Shown: in pieces, positions 1 through 5,845 of the stretch | Numbering within the stretch: position 1 is the stretch's first letter | Layout of the letters: each line of letters starts with the position of its first letter | Assembly (NCBI GenBank): GCA_030609125.1 | Contig: JAUWCW010000135.1 | Span: forward strand, 1-5,928 | Reading direction: 5' to 3' | DNA length: 5,928 nt | Origin: JAUWCW01 sp030609125 [NCBI: Candidatus Rokuibacteriota bacterium] | GTDB taxonomy: Bacteria > JAUVQV01 | Position numbers and translations under genes: made by a program | Notes under the pieces: generated by a model | The model's input: only the letters and a program-made list of their open reading frames with translations | What the model was told of the DNA's origin: nothing | The model's database searches: none

Positions 1-168
1 GACGCCGCGCTCGCGCAGCCCACTCACGTATCGCTGAATCGATAGGAAAACTTCGCTTTCCGCGTCTCCTTGCCCGAGGCGGATACCGCCCAACCCATCA
101 TCGCCGATGACTCCGCCCCAGAGCGTATTGTCCAGGTCGAAGAGCCAGTAGCGAATCTTTTTCTTCAC
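1..168 (-). CDS. HAD-IIIC / FkbH-like protein, N-terminal part (runs off left edge)
   Basis: Reading the minus strand from a GTG at 168-166 gives 56 uninterrupted codons to the window edge, so only the N-terminus is present. Residues 10-15 read FDLDNT, followed by LWGGVIGDDG and then GIRLGQG. This is the signature of the HAD-superfamily IIIC / FkbH-like group, with Asp11 as predicted nucleophile and Asp13 as acid/base. Known members include FkbH, which forms glyceryl-carrier protein from a glycolytic intermediate; related proteins occur in surface-polysaccharide and polyketide clusters. The DxDxT motif lies near the N-terminus, so the extra N-terminal domain of long FkbH proteins is absent. 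A stop codon in frame at 180-178 bounds the start, and a second GTG at 174-172 is possible. Upstream Shine-Dalgarno signal is weak (GGTAAG, 8 nt before the start). Sixteen of 56 codons end in A or T, versus 8 of the first 56 in the divergent neighbour, which hints weakly at a different origin. Confidence 0.85.
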   Translation of the reverse strand, partial: MKKKIRYWLFDLDNTLWGGVIGDDGLGGIRLGQGDAESEVFLSIQRYVSGLRERGV

Positions 169-219
169 CGCCACAGCTTACCAGAGGGGCCGTGGGCCCT
201 CAAGTAACGGAGATGCACC

Positions 220-266: not shown

Positions 267-270
267 GGAG
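267..270 (+). promoter_or_regulatory. Ribosome binding site that fixes the activase-fusion start
   Basis: GGAG at 267-270 sits 7 nt before the ATG at 278, an ideal Shine-Dalgarno spacing. The in-frame upstream candidates, TTG at 239 and ATG at 254, have no comparable purine-rich site at a suitable distance. The conserved start of the ATPase fold (FFIGLDSGS) begins six residues after the chosen Met, as is usual for the family. Confidence 0.75.
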
Positions 271-277
271 AAATTCT

Positions 278-3200
278 ATGGGATCCGAAAAATCCTTCTT
301 CATCGGTCTGGACTCCGGCTCTGTCAGCCTGAACACCGTCGTGGTCTCTCCCTCGGGAGAGGTCCTGCACGAGCGGTACGACAGGCTCCGCGGAGAGCCC
401 CTCAAGGCCTGCCGCCGGTCGCTGGCGAAGGTGCTGGAGGAGTTCGGCGCCGACGGCCTGCAAGGGCTGGCTCTCACCGGCTCGGGAGGCCGCGTCCTGG
501 CGGAAATTCTGGGGGGTCTCTTCGTCAACGAGATCCTCGCCCAGGCGAAGGCCGTCTCCCGGCTCCACCCCGACGTAAGGAGCGTCATCGAGATGGGAGG
601 GGAGGACTCGAAGCTGCTCGTCATGGGAGCCGACGGCGGAGAGAGCCGCCTGGAGGATTTCTCCATGAACACCGTCTGCGCCGCGGGGACGGGATCCTTT
701 CTCGACCAGCAGGCCGCCCGGATAGGCGTCTCCATAGAGGGTGAGTTCGGGGAACTGGCACAAAAATCACGGAAGCCGCCGCGCATCGCCGGTCGCTGCA
801 GCGTCTTTGCCAAGTCGGACATGATCCACCTGCAGCAGATCGCCACGCCGGTGCACGACATCATAGCGGGACTCTGCCATGCCCTGGCGCGGAACTTCAA
901 GAGCGACATCTGCCGCGGCAAGAAGCTGGAGAAGCCCGTTGCCTTCCAGGGAGGGGTGGCCGCCAACGCCGGCATGGTCAGGGCCTTTCGCGACATCCTC
1001 CGACTGGACGACGGGGAGCTCGTCATCCCCCGGCGCTTCGCCTCCATGGGCGCCATCGGGGCGGTGCTGCTCCTTCAGGAGTCTGCCGGCGCCATAGCGT
1101 CCTTTCGCGGCCTGGGGGCGCTCGACAGGCACCTGGCCGAGGCGACGCCGCCCGACAGCTCCCTGGCGCCGCTCGCCGCCTCGGCGGGCAGGCTTCCGCC
1201 CCGCGAGACACCCCTCGCATCGGCCTCCGGGGCGCAGAGAGTGTACCTGGGCGTGGACATCGGCTCCATCAGCACCAACGTGGTGGCCATCGACGAGAAC
1301 GGTAACCTCCTCGCCAAGCGGTACCTGATGACGGCGAGCCGCCCCATTGAAGCCGTCCGCAGGGGGCTCCGCGAGGTCGGTGAAGAACTGGGTGGCTCCG
1401 TGACGGTCCTCGGCGCGGGAACGACCGGATCGGGCAGGTACATGATCGGCGACTACATCGGCGCCGACACCGTCAGGAACGAGATCACCGCCCAGGCGAC
1501 GGCCGCTCTCCACTACGACCCGCGGGTCGACACCATCTTCGAGATCGGCGGCCAGGACTCCAAGTACGTGGCACTCCGTGACGCGGCGGTGGTCGACTTC
1601 GAGATGAACAAGGTCTGTGCCGCCGGAACGGGCTCTTTCCTCGAGGAACAGGCGGAGAGACTGGGGGTCGACATCGACGGGGAGTTCGGCAGCATGTCCC
1701 TGGCGGCGAAAGCCCCTTCGAAGCTCGGCGAACGGTGTACGGTCTTCATGGACTCCGATCTCGTCAGGCAGCAGCAACGGGGGAGCGACCCGGGCAACCT
1801 GGCGGCGGGGCTCTGCTACTCCATCGTCCACAACTACCTGAACAAGGTCGTCGGCGAACGGAAGGTGGGCGAACGCATCTTCCTGCAGGGCGGGATCGCC
1901 TTCAACGAAGGCGTGGTGGCGGCCTTTCAGGAGGTCACGGGAAAACCTATCACCGTCCCTCCCCACCACGACGTGACAGGGGCCATCGGGGCGGCGCTCC
2001 TGGCCCGGGAGAACAGCAGGGGCGAAGAAAGCACCTTCAAGGGATTCGACCTTGCCACCAGGGAGTACCGCCAGGATTCGTTCAGCTGCGGCAGCTGCAG
2101 CAACAGCTGCGAGATCAACCGCGTGAGGGTGGAAGGGGAAAAGCCCCTCTACTACGGGGGCCGGTGCGAGAAGTACGAGGTGCGGCGCAGCTCTTCCGAC
2201 GCCGAGGCGATCCCCGCGCTCTTCGAGGAGAGGGAGAAGCTCCTGATGGGAGAGGCGGCGGAAACACCCGGCAGAAAGAAGATCGGCGTCCCCCGCATCC
2301 TGCACTTTTATGAATTCTACCCCTTCTGGCGGACCTTTCTCGCCGAACTCGGCTTCGAGGCGGTCCCCTCTCCCCCCTCTTCGGGCCGGATGATCCGCGA
2401 GGGAATGGAGGCGGTGTCGGCGGAGTCCTGCTTCCCCGTCAAGATCGCCCACGGACACATCCTCTCCCTGACGGGGCAGGATCTGGAGGCGATCCTCCTG
2501 CCGAGTCTCGTCAGCTTCCCGCAGCTCGACGGCAAACAGGAGAAGAACGTCACCTGCCCCTACAGTCAGGCCATCCCGTACCTCGTCAGGGCAACCCTCG
2601 GCGACCGCCTGGGCCCCACGCGGCTTCTCCAGCCCATCGTCGATTTCCAGCACGGCCGGAACACCGTCTATCGCTCCCTCCTCGACCTCGGCGCCGAACT
2701 GGGAGCCTCAGGCGTCGACTCGGCCCGGGCCTTTCGTGCCGCGGAAGAGGCGCAGGAACGGTTCACGGCGCGGCTTCGCCGCCGGGGGACAGAGGTCATC
2801 GAGGGTCTGCGCGAAACCGGCGGGCAGGGGCTTGTTCTCGTGGGAAGAACGTACAACACCTGCGACAGCGGCGTGAACCTCAACCTCCCCCGGAAGATAC
2901 GGGACCTGGGACGGGCGGCGCTGCCGATGGATTTTCTCCCGTACGACATCGACGGCTCCAACGGCGCCGTTCCCAACATGTACTGGCGCACGGGACTGCG
3001 GATCATGGCCGCCGTCAGGTTCATAAAGGAGCGGCCCTGGCTGCTGCCGGTCTACCTCACCAACTTCGGCTGCGGCCCCGACTCGTTCATCTCTCACTTC
3101 TTCAGGGAGCACCTGGCCGGGCGCCCCTACCTGCAGCTTGAAATCGACGAGCACAGCGCCGACGCCGGGGCCCTGACCCGCCTGGAGGCCTTCCTCGACA

Positions 3201-4450
3201 GCCTTCCCCCGGAGGGGAAGAGAAAACCGGCGGCCGCACCGGCGGCGCCGAAGGAGCAAACCAGCCTCCGGGGAAGAACCCTCTACCTCCCCTACATGAC
3301 AGACCACGGCTACGCCCTGGCCGCGGCCTTCCGGGCCCTGGGCCAGGCGGCGGAAGTGCTCCCCGGGGCCGACGAGCACTCCGTCGCCCTGGGCCGCAAG
3401 CACACCTCCGGGAAAGAGTGCTACCCCTGCATCGTGACCACCGGCGACCTGGTGAAGAAGGTGAGCGGGCCGGGTTTCGACCCCGATCGGGCGGCCTTCT
3501 TCATGCCCACCGGCGACGGCCCCTGCCGGTTCGGACAGTACCGCGCCCATCACGGCCGCGTGCTGAGACAGCTCGGCTTCGGCCAGGTCCCCCTCCTCTC
3601 CCCCGCCGCCAGCAACTCCTACGGCGGCCTGGATAAGGGATTCGAGCTTCTGGTGTGGGACGGCATCCTGGCCGTCGACACCCTGGACAGGCTGCGCCGG
3701 CGCTACCGCCCCTACGCGCTGGAGCCGGAGGGGGCGGAGGAGATATACCGGCGCTCCCTTGAGGCCATCGTCTCCGAGGTGGAGAAGAAGGGCAATCTCC
3801 TTCCCATCCTCCGCCGTGCGGGGGAGGAACTGTCGCGCCTGCCGGGGCGGGACGAGGAGCGCCCCCTCATCGGCGTCGTGGGGGAGATATTCCTCCGGAC
3901 CAACGAGTTCTCCAACGAGGACCTGATCCGAAAGCTGGAACACTTCGGCGCGGAGGTCGCCCTTGCTCCCGTGGCGGAGTGGATCTTCTACACCAATTTC
4001 ACCCACGGCCGCCGCTGCCTTGTCCAGCGACGCTACGGGGCCTTCGCCCGCAACTGGATCAAGAACCGCTACCAGCTTCGCCGGGAGAGGGCGTTTCTCC
4101 ACACGGTGGAGGAATTTCTGGACAACGGACACGAACCGCCGGTGGAACACATTCTCGACCTGAGCCTCCCCTACCTCCACCACTCCCTCGAGGGGGAGGC
4201 GGTCCTCACCATCGGCAAGTCCATCGACATGGCCATGAAGGGGGCCTCGGGGATCGTCAGCGCCATGCCCTTCACCTGCATGCCGGGGATCATCTCGGCA
4301 GCGATCTCCAGGAAGGTGAGCGTGGATCACCACTCCCTCCCCTTCCTGAATATGGTATATGATGGTCAGGGCGGCGTGGGGGCCGAAGTCCGGCTCGAGG
4401 CTTTCATCCACCAAGCCCGCAGATACGCCCGCAACCGGGCAACATCCTGA
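278..4450 (+). CDS. Tandem BadF-type activase fused to DUF2229/COG3580-COG3581 HgdB-like modules (CoA-dehydratase-activase-related Fe-S ATPase)
   Basis: This 1390-residue protein is a probable cytoplasmic ATP-driven electron-transfer enzyme of the 2-hydroxyacyl-CoA dehydratase activase / benzoyl-CoA reductase ATPase superfamily. Two activase domains occur in tandem. Domain 1 (about 7-280) has phosphate motif GLDSGS (Asp12), MGGEDSK (106-112), VCAAGTGSF with Cys134, and GRCSVF with Cys174. Domain 2 (about 322-575) repeats these as GVDIGS (Asp327), IGGQDSK (423-429), Cys447 and GERCTVF with Cys487. In characterised homodimeric activases the two equivalent cysteines of each subunit hold one bridging [4Fe-4S] cluster. 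An Ala/Pro-rich linker separates the copies. A cysteine cluster follows (C604, C607, C611, C630). Next come a DUF2229/COG3580-like module (about 670-975: ESCFPVK C718, VTCPY C760, C862, TNFGCGPDSF C932, DEHSADAG), a PAAAPAAP linker near 985, and a COG3581-like module (about 1000-1390: GKECYPC C1048/C1051, GDGPCRFGQY C1083, PFTCMPG C1334, YDGQ). Proteins of this length and order are known in anaerobes, but I know of no assigned substrate. The ATG at 278 is preferred over the longer TTG-239 reading because of its ribosome binding site and the promoter position. Confidence 0.93.
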   Translation: MGSEKSFFIGLDSGSVSLNTVVVSPSGEVLHERYDRLRGEPLKACRRSLAKVLEEFGADGLQGLALTGSGGRVLAEILGGLFVNEILAQAKAVSRLHPDVRSVIEMGGEDSKLLVMGADGGESRLEDFSMNTVCAAGTGSFLDQQAARIGVSIEGEFGELAQKSRKPPRIAGRCSVFAKSDMIHLQQIATPVHDIIAGLCHALARNFKSDICRGKKLEKPVAFQGGVAANAGMVRAFRDILRLDDGELVIPRRFASMGAIGAVLLLQESAGAIASFRGLGALDRHLAEATPPDSSLAPLAASAGRLPPRETPLASASGAQRVYLGVDIGSISTNVVAIDENGNLLAKRYLMTASRPIEAVRRGLREVGEELGGSVTVLGAGTTGSGRYMIGDYIGADTVRNEITAQATAALHYDPRVDTIFEIGGQDSKYVALRDAAVVDFEMNKVCAAGTGSFLEEQAERLGVDIDGEFGSMSLAAKAPSKLGERCTVFMDSDLVRQQQRGSDPGNLAAGLCYSIVHNYLNKVVGERKVGERIFLQGGIAFNEGVVAAFQEVTGKPITVPPHHDVTGAIGAALLARENSRGEESTFKGFDLATREYRQDSFSCGSCSNSCEINRVRVEGEKPLYYGGRCEKYEVRRSSSDAEAIPALFEEREKLLMGEAAETPGRKKIGVPRILHFYEFYPFWRTFLAELGFEAVPSPPSSGRMIREGMEAVSAESCFPVKIAHGHILSLTGQDLEAILLPSLVSFPQLDGKQEKNVTCPYSQAIPYLVRATLGDRLGPTRLLQPIVDFQHGRNTVYRSLLDLGAELGASGVDSARAFRAAEEAQERFTARLRRRGTEVIEGLRETGGQGLVLVGRTYNTCDSGVNLNLPRKIRDLGRAALPMDFLPYDIDGSNGAVPNMYWRTGLRIMAAVRFIKERPWLLPVYLTNFGCGPDSFISHFFREHLAGRPYLQLEIDEHSADAGALTRLEAFLDSLPPEGKRKPAAAPAAPKEQTSLRGRTLYLPYMTDHGYALAAAFRALGQAAEVLPGADEHSVALGRKHTSGKECYPCIVTTGDLVKKVSGPGFDPDRAAFFMPTGDGPCRFGQYRAHHGRVLRQLGFGQVPLLSPAASNSYGGLDKGFELLVWDGILAVDTLDRLRRRYRPYALEPEGAEEIYRRSLEAIVSEVEKKGNLLPILRRAGEELSRLPGRDEERPLIGVVGEIFLRTNEFSNEDLIRKLEHFGAEVALAPVAEWIFYTNFTHGRRCLVQRRYGAFARNWIKNRYQLRRERAFLHTVEEFLDNGHEPPVEHILDLSLPYLHHSLEGEAVLTIGKSIDMAMKGASGIVSAMPFTCMPGIISAAISRKVSVDHHSLPFLNMVYDGQGGVGAEVRLEAFIHQARRYARNRATS

Positions 4451-4499: not shown

Positions 4500-5738
4500 A
4501 TGAGAATTGCACGGATCGCCGCTTTGTGTGTTGCCGCCACACTGTTCCTGTCGGCCGGGGCGGCCTTCGGGGCTCATGCCGATGGACTGAACAGCATCAA
4601 GGAGGGCGATCAGGTCCAGCCCTTCAAGGGCCGGAACCTCGAAGGGGAAGAAGTCGATGTCGGCGCACTCATCGGCAAGAAAGTGGTGGTGCTGGCCTTC
4701 TGGTCGATCTACTGCAAGCCCTGCGTGGAGGAGATCTCCAGCCTCATCCGCCTGCAGGACGAGTTCGGCGGGGAGGACCTGGAAGTCATTGGGATCAACA
4801 CCGACAGCGAGCTCGGCATCAGCCGGATACGCACCTTCATCAGCCGCTTCGAGTCGTTCGAGAAGAAGAAAATCAACTACGACAACATCTACGACGAGAG
4901 TAACGAGATCACCAAGCTCCTCGGCATCGGGTTTCTCCCCACCGTCCTCTCGGTGAACACCAAGGGGCAGGTCGAGAAAGTCTTCGTCGGCTTCAAGGAA
5001 AAGAGCGAGGAGGAGATCTTCGCCGACATCCGCGGTCTTCTGCCGTCGGTTGCCCCCGAAACGGCCGTCGACACCGACACCCAGACTTTCTCCGTCGAGG
5101 CCGTCGTCCCGCTCTGCGGCTTCTACAACGCTGACGGCTGGATGGGGGATTTCATGGGCAATCGCGACCTGGAACTGGAACTGGAGGAGACGGCCGCCAT
5201 GGCCCGGAACAAGTCGACCAAGCTGATCATCAGGGAAGCCCTCCTCAGCCTGGGGATCACCCTTTTGGAGGATCCCGAAAAGGAAGGGTGCTTCCGCCCC
5301 TACGGGGTCTACGTGATGGAGGACCCCCTCGAGATCAAGGACAACCTGACGAACCTCGTCAACGAGCTTTTCCTCAATCGACTCGTCAAGACCCAGGGCA
5401 TCGACGAGGACTTCATGGAAACCGAATACCGCGTGAATGAGCGGGCCACGGTGAACATGGTCGCGCTGCGGGACCGCCTCGACAGCCTGGGGTATGAAAC
5501 ATCGCCGATAACGGTGACCTTCTCGGTCATCAACGTAAGGAAGCTGGACCAGGTAAAGTTTGAGAAAATTCTTCTGCAGCAGTCCCGCTACATCGGCTAC
5601 TTCAGCTTCCCCAACTACACCATCTACACCTCGGCGGAGAACTTCGCCGACGAAATGAGGAAGATGAACCTGGAGGGGCTCAAGGTCTTCATCGAGGAGA
5701 CCGGCGACGACAGCATAGAACTCGAAGTCTGGCGGTGA
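4500..5738 (+). CDS. Exported TlpA-like thioredoxin-fold protein with unrecognised C-terminal domain
   Basis: The 412-residue product begins with a Sec signal peptide: basic MRIAR, a hydrophobic core at about 6-23, and likely cleavage after AHA at 27 (or after Gly24). No lipobox is seen, so it should be periplasmic. Residues about 32-180 form a TlpA/ResA-type thioredoxin domain. The active site is Cys72-Lys-Pro-Cys75, preceded by FWSIY rather than the usual W-C, and the cis-proline motif FLPT is at 145-148 (Pro147). TlpA-family proteins reduce or exchange disulfides outside the cytoplasm, for example in cytochrome maturation. Residues about 185-412 form an acidic, mixed alpha/beta region that I do not recognise. 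It carries the only other cysteines of the mature protein, Cys206 (PLCGFYNADGW) and Cys264 (EGCFRPYG). Usual TlpA proteins are about 150-200 residues, so this is roughly twice as long. It lies 49 bp after the activase-fusion gene. The thioredoxin call is firm; the substrate is unknown. Confidence 0.9.
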   Translation: MRIARIAALCVAATLFLSAGAAFGAHADGLNSIKEGDQVQPFKGRNLEGEEVDVGALIGKKVVVLAFWSIYCKPCVEEISSLIRLQDEFGGEDLEVIGINTDSELGISRIRTFISRFESFEKKKINYDNIYDESNEITKLLGIGFLPTVLSVNTKGQVEKVFVGFKEKSEEEIFADIRGLLPSVAPETAVDTDTQTFSVEAVVPLCGFYNADGWMGDFMGNRDLELELEETAAMARNKSTKLIIREALLSLGITLLEDPEKEGCFRPYGVYVMEDPLEIKDNLTNLVNELFLNRLVKTQGIDEDFMETEYRVNERATVNMVALRDRLDSLGYETSPITVTFSVINVRKLDQVKFEKILLQQSRYIGYFSFPNYTIYTSAENFADEMRKMNLEGLKVFIEETGDDSIELEVWR

Positions 5739-5769: not shown

Positions 5770-5845
5770 GGGGGTGTAGCTCAGCTGGGAGAGCGCAGCG
5801 TTCGCAACGCTGAGGTCACGGGTTCGATCCCCGTCATCTCCACCA
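5770..5845 (+). tRNA. tRNA-Ala, anticodon CGC, with encoded CCA
   Basis: The 76-nt sequence folds as a full cloverleaf. The acceptor stem pairs 5770-5776 (GGGGGTG) with 5835-5841 (CATCTCC). The D stem is GCTC 5779-5782 with GAGC 5791-5794. The anticodon stem is CAGCG 5796-5800 with CGCTG 5808-5812. The T stem is ACGGG 5818-5822 with CCCGT 5830-5834, around loop TTCGATC. The anticodon loop TTCGCAA places CGC at 5803-5805, which reads the alanine codon GCG. The third acceptor pair is G5772-T5839, the G3:U70 wobble that is the classical identity element for alanyl-tRNA synthetase, so anticodon and acceptor agree. Discriminator A is 5842 and CCA is 5843-5845. Confidence 0.96.

What the first reader, a model, noticed from the sequence alone, without database searches (positions are those of the whole stretch)
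278..4450. Single-chain tandem activase fused to its own apparent electron acceptor
The sequence shows two complete BadF-type domains, each with its own nucleotide motifs and cluster cysteines (C134/C174 and C447/C487, both 40 residues apart). They are followed by HgdB-like modules. In studied systems the activase is a separate homodimer with one cluster bridging two subunits, and it docks onto a separate dehydratase or double-cubane protein. Here the dimer and the acceptor appear to be in one polypeptide, implying an intramolecular bridging cluster and a permanent reductase-acceptor complex. The architecture recurs in anaerobes, but I know of no assigned substrate.
Basis: partly seen in the sequence, partly recalled or inferred. 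Interest (0 to 1): 0.6.

Follow-up and report, generated by a model that had tools for sequence, protein, structure and literature searches.

The report
One-chain ATP-driven iron-sulfur reductase
One bacterial gene appears to fuse an entire ATP-powered electron "pump" and the enzyme it feeds into a single protein; the arrangement is widespread and conserved, its substrate is unknown, and that makes it an open, testable question.

Summary
Window 278-4450 (+) encodes 1390 aa with two complete activase domains (D1, D2) and cysteines C134/C174 and C447/C487. The acceptor is really two modules, a DUF2229 module and a C-terminal one, each with three invariant cysteines, as in 2-hydroxyacyl-CoA dehydratase subunits and unlike the six of a double-cubane protein. 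All 14 cysteines are invariant in 69 of 69 full-length relatives. In 12 of 24 more distant relatives D1 lacks the Asp of its second phosphate motif but keeps both cysteines, while D2 is intact in 24 of 24; this favours a D1-D2 pair sharing one cluster. Six genomes split the chain between the modules, and four have a gene for one unduplicated activase with the same tail. The cysteine geometry could not be measured, as no coordinates are given out. No neighbouring gene recurs widely, so no substrate can be named. [quoted passage not shown]

The parts
278..4450 (+). single-chain tandem activase plus two dehydratase-like modules, 1390 aa
   Evidence: 80 genome loci with relatives kept, 69 full-length by my criterion
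267..270 (+). GGAG, likely ribosome-binding site 7 nt before ATG 278
   Evidence: read directly from sequence
302..1072 (+). activase domain 1 (PF01869); C134 at 677-679, C174 at 797-799; phosphate motif GGED
1247..2005 (+). activase domain 2 (PF01869); C447 at 1616-1618, C487 at 1736-1738; phosphate motif GGQD
2087..2167 (+). four-cysteine tail of domain 2, CX2CX3CX18C (C604, C607, C611, C630), candidate third metal site
2240..3232 (+). acceptor module 1, DUF2229 (PF09989 at 2279-2935), dehydratase-subunit fold; C718, C760, C932
3275..4447 (+). acceptor module 2 (COG3581-like, label recalled), three cysteines C1048, C1083, C1334; a separate gene in six other genomes

Best explanation
A one-chain, ATP-driven, very-low-potential iron-sulfur enzyme of the benzoyl-CoA reductase / 2-hydroxyacyl-CoA dehydratase type. 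D1 and D2 face each other as the two halves of an activase and hold one bridging [4Fe-4S] cluster with C134, C174, C447 and C487 (inferred). Behind D2 a small ribbon with C604/C607/C611/C630 holds a further cluster, probably [4Fe-4S] (inferred from motif only). The DUF2229 module and the C-terminal module form the counterpart of a dehydratase subunit pair, each with a three-cysteine [4Fe-4S] cluster that leaves one iron free (inferred from conserved cysteines and fold). A ferredoxin-like donor (assumed) reduces the activase part; ATP binding and hydrolysis drive the electron to the acceptor clusters, where a substrate is reduced or turned into a radical. Shown here: domain make-up, conserved cysteines, fold class of D1, D2 and module 1, profile relation of both modules to HGD-D, splitting and fusion of the parts in other genomes, D1 degeneration in half of the distant relatives examined. 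Not shown: clusters, geometry, donor, substrate. I favour a general rather than pathway-bound role, because no partner gene recurs widely beside it.
For: 14 cysteines in the grouping 4+4+3+3 are invariant in 69 of 69 full-length relatives; in 24 mostly distant full-length relatives the groups are complete in 24, 23, 24 and 24. D2 keeps GGQD in 69 of 69 and 24 of 24; D1 keeps Asp110 in 68 of 69 close but only 12 of 24 distant relatives, while its two cysteines stay: a D1 without a working phosphate motif makes sense as half of a D1-D2 pair. Four genomes have a gene for one activase of 319-327 aa ending in the same CX2CX3C...C tail; in one (L174) module 1, module 2 and this activase are three genes in a row, overlapping or 1 bp apart. 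In the tree D2 is one group (100/97) and the tailed single activases sit beside it (93/86, just under the program's star). Six genomes split the chain between the two modules. Fold matches: D1 Z 31.3, D2 Z 27.5, module 1 Z 15.8. hhalign against 38 HGD-D proteins from 24 loci, which have three cysteines in 38 of 38: module 1 probability 94.3%, E 1.1e-7; module 2 68.6%, E 4.6e-5 over 323 columns; in both modules the first and third cysteines fall on the first and third HGD-D cysteines, C1083 falls one column from the second, C760 is not lined up with it (third cysteine of module 2). Three-cysteine clusters are the dehydratase pattern and six cysteines the double-cubane pattern (PMC11971306 section 8; PMC11574389 section 6). 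The own genome has no PF06050 match. pTM 0.83 (aa 1-985) and 0.87 (aa 590-1390) suggest a defined arrangement of domains (my inference).
Against: No coordinates were available, so D1 facing D2 is untested. In the window's own close group D1 looks ATP-competent, so a D1-D1' or D2-D2' pairing of two chains is possible there. Module 2 has no Pfam match of its own in the window, its profile relation to HGD-D is only 68.6%, and modules 1 and 2 compared directly give only 41%. The VIA table for aa 590-1390 lists only generic folds for module 2. CX2CX3CX18C could bind zinc; a profile of the tail found nothing convincing among solved structures (best E 0.34), and one of 24 distant relatives lacks one of its cysteines in the alignment. 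Neighbour genes give no hint of a redox pathway. The own genome is 92% complete, so absence of PF06050 is not proof.
Confidence: 0.6

Rival explanations
1. The bridging cluster is formed between two chains (D1 with D1', D2 with D2', or D1 with D2' in a swapped dimer), so the protein works as a homodimer and the cluster is not intramolecular.
For: Classical dehydratase activators are homodimers (PMC11574389 section 6); D1 in the window's close group keeps Asp12 and Asp110 in 68 of 69 each, so it could act like a full activase.
Against: A D1-D1' pair would lack the phosphate-2 Asp in 12 of 24 distant relatives. High pTM of one chain alone. A D1-D2' swap is not addressed by any of this.
Confidence: 0.25
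2. It is only an activase: the fused modules are docking or regulatory parts and the electron goes to a separate target enzyme.
For: Pfam and NCBIfam describe the parts as activase; no substrate pathway was seen beside the gene.
Against: Three invariant cysteines in each module, 69 of 69; module 1 has a dehydratase-subunit fold; no PF06050 target in the own genome.
Confidence: 0.13
3. The acceptor part carries a double-cubane [8Fe-9S] cluster as in DCCP or BzdN.
For: Foldseek ranks BzdNO and DCCP chains first for the module part; VIA lists DCCP at Z 14.8, within 1 of the best row.
Against: An [8Fe-9S] cluster uses six cysteines (PMC11971306 section 8); each module has three invariant ones.
Confidence: 0.05
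4. The four-cysteine tail is a structural zinc site, not an electron-carrying cluster.
For: It is a small beta ribbon in the model (strands 597-603, 612-618, 624-626); four-cysteine ribbons often bind zinc (recalled); the first spacing grows to X6 or X8 in 5 of 24 distant relatives.
Against: CX2CX3CX11-13C between two domains of 2,4-dienoyl-CoA reductase-type enzymes is predicted to bind a [4Fe-4S] cluster, based on the E. coli structure (PMC11574389, passage); the tail stays with the activase when the genes are separate.
Confidence: 0.35

Closest known systems
Class I benzoyl-CoA reductase / 3-methylbenzoyl-CoA reductase (MbdONPQ, 9gai; BzdNOPQ)
   Same: Two ASKHA activase halves plus two homologous acceptor subunits, in a permanent complex in the BCR and MBR types (PMC11971306, passages); D2 matches 9gai_D (Z 27.5, rmsd 1.6, 259 aligned).
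   Different: There separate polypeptides, here one; BzdN has a six-cysteine double-cubane cluster, here three cysteines per module; extra four-cysteine tail; equivalog scores far below cut-off.
(R)-2-hydroxyacyl-CoA dehydratase with its activator (1hux, 4ehu, 3o3n)
   Same: Activase fold (4ehu_B Z 31.3) and dehydratase-subunit fold of module 1 (3o3n_B Z 15.8); three-cysteine pattern in both modules.
   Different: There activator and dehydratase are separate components (PMC11574389 section 6), here fused; window not matched by PF06050; the matched activator chains of the PDB are 243-276 residues, too short for the tail; substrate unknown.
Double-cubane cluster protein and its reductase (DCCP/DCCP-R; 6eno, 7yyl, 7yzm)
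   Same: Activase fold and acceptor fold (Z 24.5 and 14.8).
   Different: The double-cubane cluster takes six cysteines; here three per module.
DUF2229 proteins (PF09989; COG1924-COG1924-COG3580-COG3581 chains, COG make-up recalled)
   Same: Same family and architecture: full length in 69 of the 80 best genome loci (picked as best matches to the full chain, so not a census).
   Different: Nothing essential: the window protein is a member. The ten paper searches showed no biochemical study of it (listings and passages only).

Membership tests
BadF/BcrAD activase family (PF01869, TIGR00241) | profile match over curated cut-off, both domains | tested here: met
   PF01869 118.9 and 151.4 bits against 31.5; TIGR00241 295.5 against 125.4, two stretches
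BadF/BcrAD activase family (PF01869, TIGR00241) | two cluster cysteines per half, CAAGTG and RCxVF contexts | tested here: met
   C134, C174, C447, C487 invariant, 69 of 69
BadF/BcrAD activase family (PF01869, TIGR00241) | one [4Fe-4S] cluster bridging the two halves | not testable with these tools
   no coordinates given out; needs structure or spectroscopy
DUF2229 family (PF09989) | profile match over cut-off | tested here: met
   196.7 bits against 29.4
2-hydroxyacyl-CoA dehydratase component D (PF06050) | Pfam match in the window protein | tested here: not met
   no PF06050 match in the window protein or the own genome; separate-gene counterpart of module 2, L174:3071-4153, does match, 29.6 against 28.4
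2-hydroxyacyl-CoA dehydratase component D (PF06050) | subunit fold | tested here: met
   module 1 only: 3o3n_B Z 15.8, rmsd 3.7, 270 aligned; module 2 inconclusive
2-hydroxyacyl-CoA dehydratase component D (PF06050) | three cluster cysteines per subunit | tested here: met
   C718/C760/C932 and C1048/C1083/C1334, 69 of 69; three cysteines in 38 of 38 HGD-D proteins
2-hydroxyacyl-CoA dehydratase component D (PF06050) | dehydration of a 2-hydroxyacyl-CoA | not testable with these tools
   needs enzymology
Class I benzoyl-CoA reductase (TIGR02259, TIGR02261, TIGR03192) | equivalog score over cut-off | tested here: not met
   139.1/578, 118.3/312.85, 112.1/380.2 bits
Double-cubane cluster protein | six cysteine ligands per acceptor subunit | tested here: not met
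   three invariant per module; six from PMC11971306 section 8
Methanogenesis marker 15 (TIGR03286) | equivalog score over cut-off | tested here: not met
   207.6 bits against 455.75

The most novel reading that the evidence does not exclude
A complete ATP-driven super-reductase in one polypeptide with four metal sites: an intramolecular bridging [4Fe-4S] cluster, an activase-borne relay cluster absent from the solved activators, and two open [4Fe-4S] clusters. In half of the distant relatives examined it has become asymmetric, with D1 a pseudo-ATPase, so that a single ATP site would drive each electron. It would be a general-purpose reductase, found across many phyla and not tied to any pathway operon.
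Probability: 0.4. Interest if true: 0.65.

Novelty: new variant of a known kind. Interest (0 to 1): 0.47.

Why it matters
ATP-driven electron activation below the range of ordinary ferredoxins underlies benzoyl-CoA reduction and 2-hydroxyacyl-CoA dehydration. Here the whole machine seems to be encoded by one gene, conserved with all 14 cysteines across many phyla, yet without a known substrate. One chain fixes the stoichiometry, and relatives with a degenerate D1 offer a natural way to ask how many ATP sites are needed per electron. It also marks a widespread enzyme family whose reaction is unknown.

Tried and rejected
Genome neighbourhood as a route to the substrate: clustering of neighbours in 80 loci gave 8 clusters in 5 or more loci. 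The largest, ABC-transporter ATPases by the look of their sequence, is in 12 of 80 loci (of its 17 distances 14 were printed, none under 1.7 kb); a radical SAM protein is in 6 of 80, in three of them within 400 bp upstream on the same strand. Pfam on the nearest gene: upstream Radical_SAM 5, MarR_2 4, aconitase 3 of 54; downstream at most 3 of 52 for any family. For this 54 of 55 upstream and 52 of 54 downstream genes were given (L098, L060 and L092, all long, left out). Genes beside the three-gene form in L174 are EF-G and LytR-type, no clue.

Viral collection: nothing matched the six peptide patterns tried. Solved-structure search with the tail profile: best E 0.34, unrelated proteins; with the module profile: DCCP chains only at E 0.48 and 0.74. 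VIA on aa 590-1390 did not list a dehydratase-type match for module 2, which proves nothing. Activase domains against HGD-D gave no signal, as expected. A phylum-wide census failed because the collection holds 2 genomes of the own phylum and 3 of that of G016. Double-cubane acceptor: rejected on cysteine number. Separate classical dehydratase partner: not found in the own genome.

A mend: the HGD-D set held 16 rows, of which two (L117, L133) are not HGD-D proteins but chance frames; one search repeats the comparison with 38 checked proteins, with nearly the same scores (94.4 to 94.3% and 71.3 to 68.6%).

Literature: passages of PMC10418091, PMC5322559, PMC4153887 and PMC6952196 named activases without bearing on this form. 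The DCCP papers (PMC5866592, PMC9351452) and a selenoprotein paper (PMC9879109) are not held; what is said of DCCP comes from PMC11971306. The ten searches showed no biochemical study of the fused form; this covers the open-licence library and those terms only.
Full report
Observation. The window's main gene runs 278-4450 on the + strand: ATG at 278 with GGAG seven bases before it, 1390 aa. Pfam gives two BcrAD_BadFG stretches and one DUF2229 domain; NCBIfam gives two acyl-CoA dehydratase activase stretches. The cysteines are at the stated places, each pair 40 residues apart. Predicted structures of aa 1-985 (mean pLDDT 86.6, pTM 0.83) and aa 590-1390 (88.4, 0.87) match the solved activators and a dehydratase subunit: D1 with 4ehu_B (Z 31.3, rmsd 2.1, 256 aligned) and D2 with 9gai_D (Z 27.5, rmsd 1.6, 259 aligned); module 1 with 3o3n_B (Z 15.8, rmsd 3.7, 270 aligned).

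Conservation. 69 of the 80 hold a full-length chain by my criterion; the other 11 run off a contig end or start late. In these 69 all of C134, C174, C447, C487, C604, C607, C611, C630, C718, C760, C932, C1048, C1083 and C1334 are invariant; of the other seven cysteines C200 is in 68 and the rest in 1 to 35. The tail spacing is CX2CX3C in 69 of 69, with X18 or X19 to the last cysteine in 67.

What the acceptor is. The part behind D2 is two modules, not one. Module 1 (aa 655-985) and module 2 (aa 1000-1390) each have three invariant cysteines. Compared with 38 HGD-D proteins from 24 loci, module 1 gives probability 94.3% (E 1.1e-7) and module 2 68.6% (E 4.6e-5, 323 columns). The HGD-D proteins have three conserved cysteines, each in 38 of 38. 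In both modules the first and third cysteines fall on the first and third of these; C1083 falls one column from the second, and C760 is not lined up with it (an earlier, partly impure set gave nearly the same scores). Compared directly, the two modules give only 41%. The separate-gene counterpart of module 2 in L174 matches both PF09989 (6.4e-10) and PF06050 (29.6 bits, cut-off 28.4), which ties the modules together. Three cysteines per subunit fit the dehydratase type (PMC11574389 section 6; PMC11971306 section 8) and not the six-cysteine double-cubane cluster.

The overlooked motif. C604-X2-C607-X3-C611-X18-C630 lies at the end of D2 in a small beta ribbon. A CX2CX3CX11-13C motif between two domains of 2,4-dienoyl-CoA reductase-type enzymes is predicted, from the E. 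coli structure, to bind a [4Fe-4S] cluster (PMC11574389, passage). By analogy I favour a cluster here, but zinc is not excluded. The motif belongs to the activase: four genomes have a gene for a single activase of 319-327 aa that ends in the same motif, 4 of 4.

Natural splitting. In six genomes the chain is cut between the two modules into separate genes (G001, G012, G023, G035, G051, G102); in G012 the two lie on different contigs, in G051 the module 2 gene comes first, and in G001 the first gene is cut by the contig start. In G049 (L174) three genes in a row, overlapping or 1 bp apart, encode module 1, module 2 and a single tailed activase. In a tree of 89 activase sequences all 39 D2 domains form one group (100/97), the four tailed single activases sit beside it (93/86), six activases from HGD-D loci form a group of their own (100/99), and the 40 D1 domains are long-branched and not resolved as one group. 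The simplest reading is a tailed activase that was duplicated early and fused to its acceptor pair.

D1 and D2 as a pair. D2 keeps GGQD in 69 of 69 and 24 of 24. D1 keeps Asp110 in 68 of 69 close relatives but in 12 of 24 distant ones, and Asp12 in 19 of 24, while its two cysteines never vary. A domain that loses its phosphate motif but keeps its cluster ligands is expected if it shares a cluster with an intact partner. This supports D1-D2 pairing but does not say whether within one chain or between two. The direct test, the distance between the cysteines, could not be made because models are returned without coordinates.

Context. The own genome (2.3 Mb, 376 contigs, 92% complete) has no PF06050 match. 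A second copy seems to exist: a D1 and the start of a D2 on contig C250 behind a MarR-type gene, cut by the contig end, and the end of a module 2 on contig C27; that these belong together is inference. Neighbours of the gene in 80 loci show no widely recurring partner, so no pathway can be named. DUF2229 is over its cut-off in 10 of 21 genomes searched, the own included, and in 4 of 14 control genomes: Thermus composti, Deinobacterium chartae, Thermotoga maritima and Lactococcus lactis.

Comparison with the known. The parts and their order of action correspond to class I benzoyl-CoA reductases, where an ATP-binding dimer with a bridging cluster feeds a catalytic dimer and the BCR and MBR types are permanent heterotetramers (PMC11971306, passages and sections 8 and 12). 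So neither an asymmetric activase nor a permanent complex is new in itself. New relative to described systems is that one polypeptide holds everything, the four-cysteine tail, and the relatives with a degenerate D1. The discussion section of PMC11971306 that lays out the family (BCR, HAD, DCCP, TudS) does not mention the fused form (its supplements were not seen). The architecture itself is widespread in genomes, and Pfam calls DUF2229 uncharacterised.

Verdict. Substrate and geometry remain open.

Noticed in passing
window 4500-5738 (+): 412-aa TlpA/ResA-like thioredoxin-fold protein with a CKPC motif and about 240 C-terminal residues without a Pfam match, 49 bases behind the main gene with AAAGGAGG before its ATG; possibly co-transcribed.
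   Followed up: partly
window 1-177 (-): Start of a reading frame with DLDNTLWGGVIGDDG, which resembles FkbH-type HAD proteins (name recalled), cut by the contig end.
   Followed up: no
window 5770-5845 (+): tRNA-Ala (anticodon CGC) near the contig end.
   Followed up: no
L005:1-1248 (-) and L111:3-509 (+): Second, divergent tandem-activase gene behind a MarR-type regulator on contig C250, cut by the contig end, and the C-terminal end of a module 2 on contig C27; perhaps one gene or operon broken by the assembly.
   Followed up: partly
L035:7574-8527, L044:8941-9894 and other loci: A radical SAM protein of about 316 aa lies near the gene in 6 of 80 loci, in three within 400 bp upstream on the same strand; Pfam also finds weak winged-helix matches in its tail.
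   Followed up: partly
literature, PMC6952196 Table 1 (passage): Streptococcus mutans SMU_0438c, annotated as (R)-2-hydroxyglutaryl-CoA dehydratase activator-related, rises 2.2-fold on manganese depletion. Whether it is the fused form was not checked.
   Followed up: no
window 875-877 (C200): C200 in D1 is nearly invariant (68 of 69 close, 18 of 24 distant relatives) without a ligand role in the model proposed here; unexplained.
   Followed up: no
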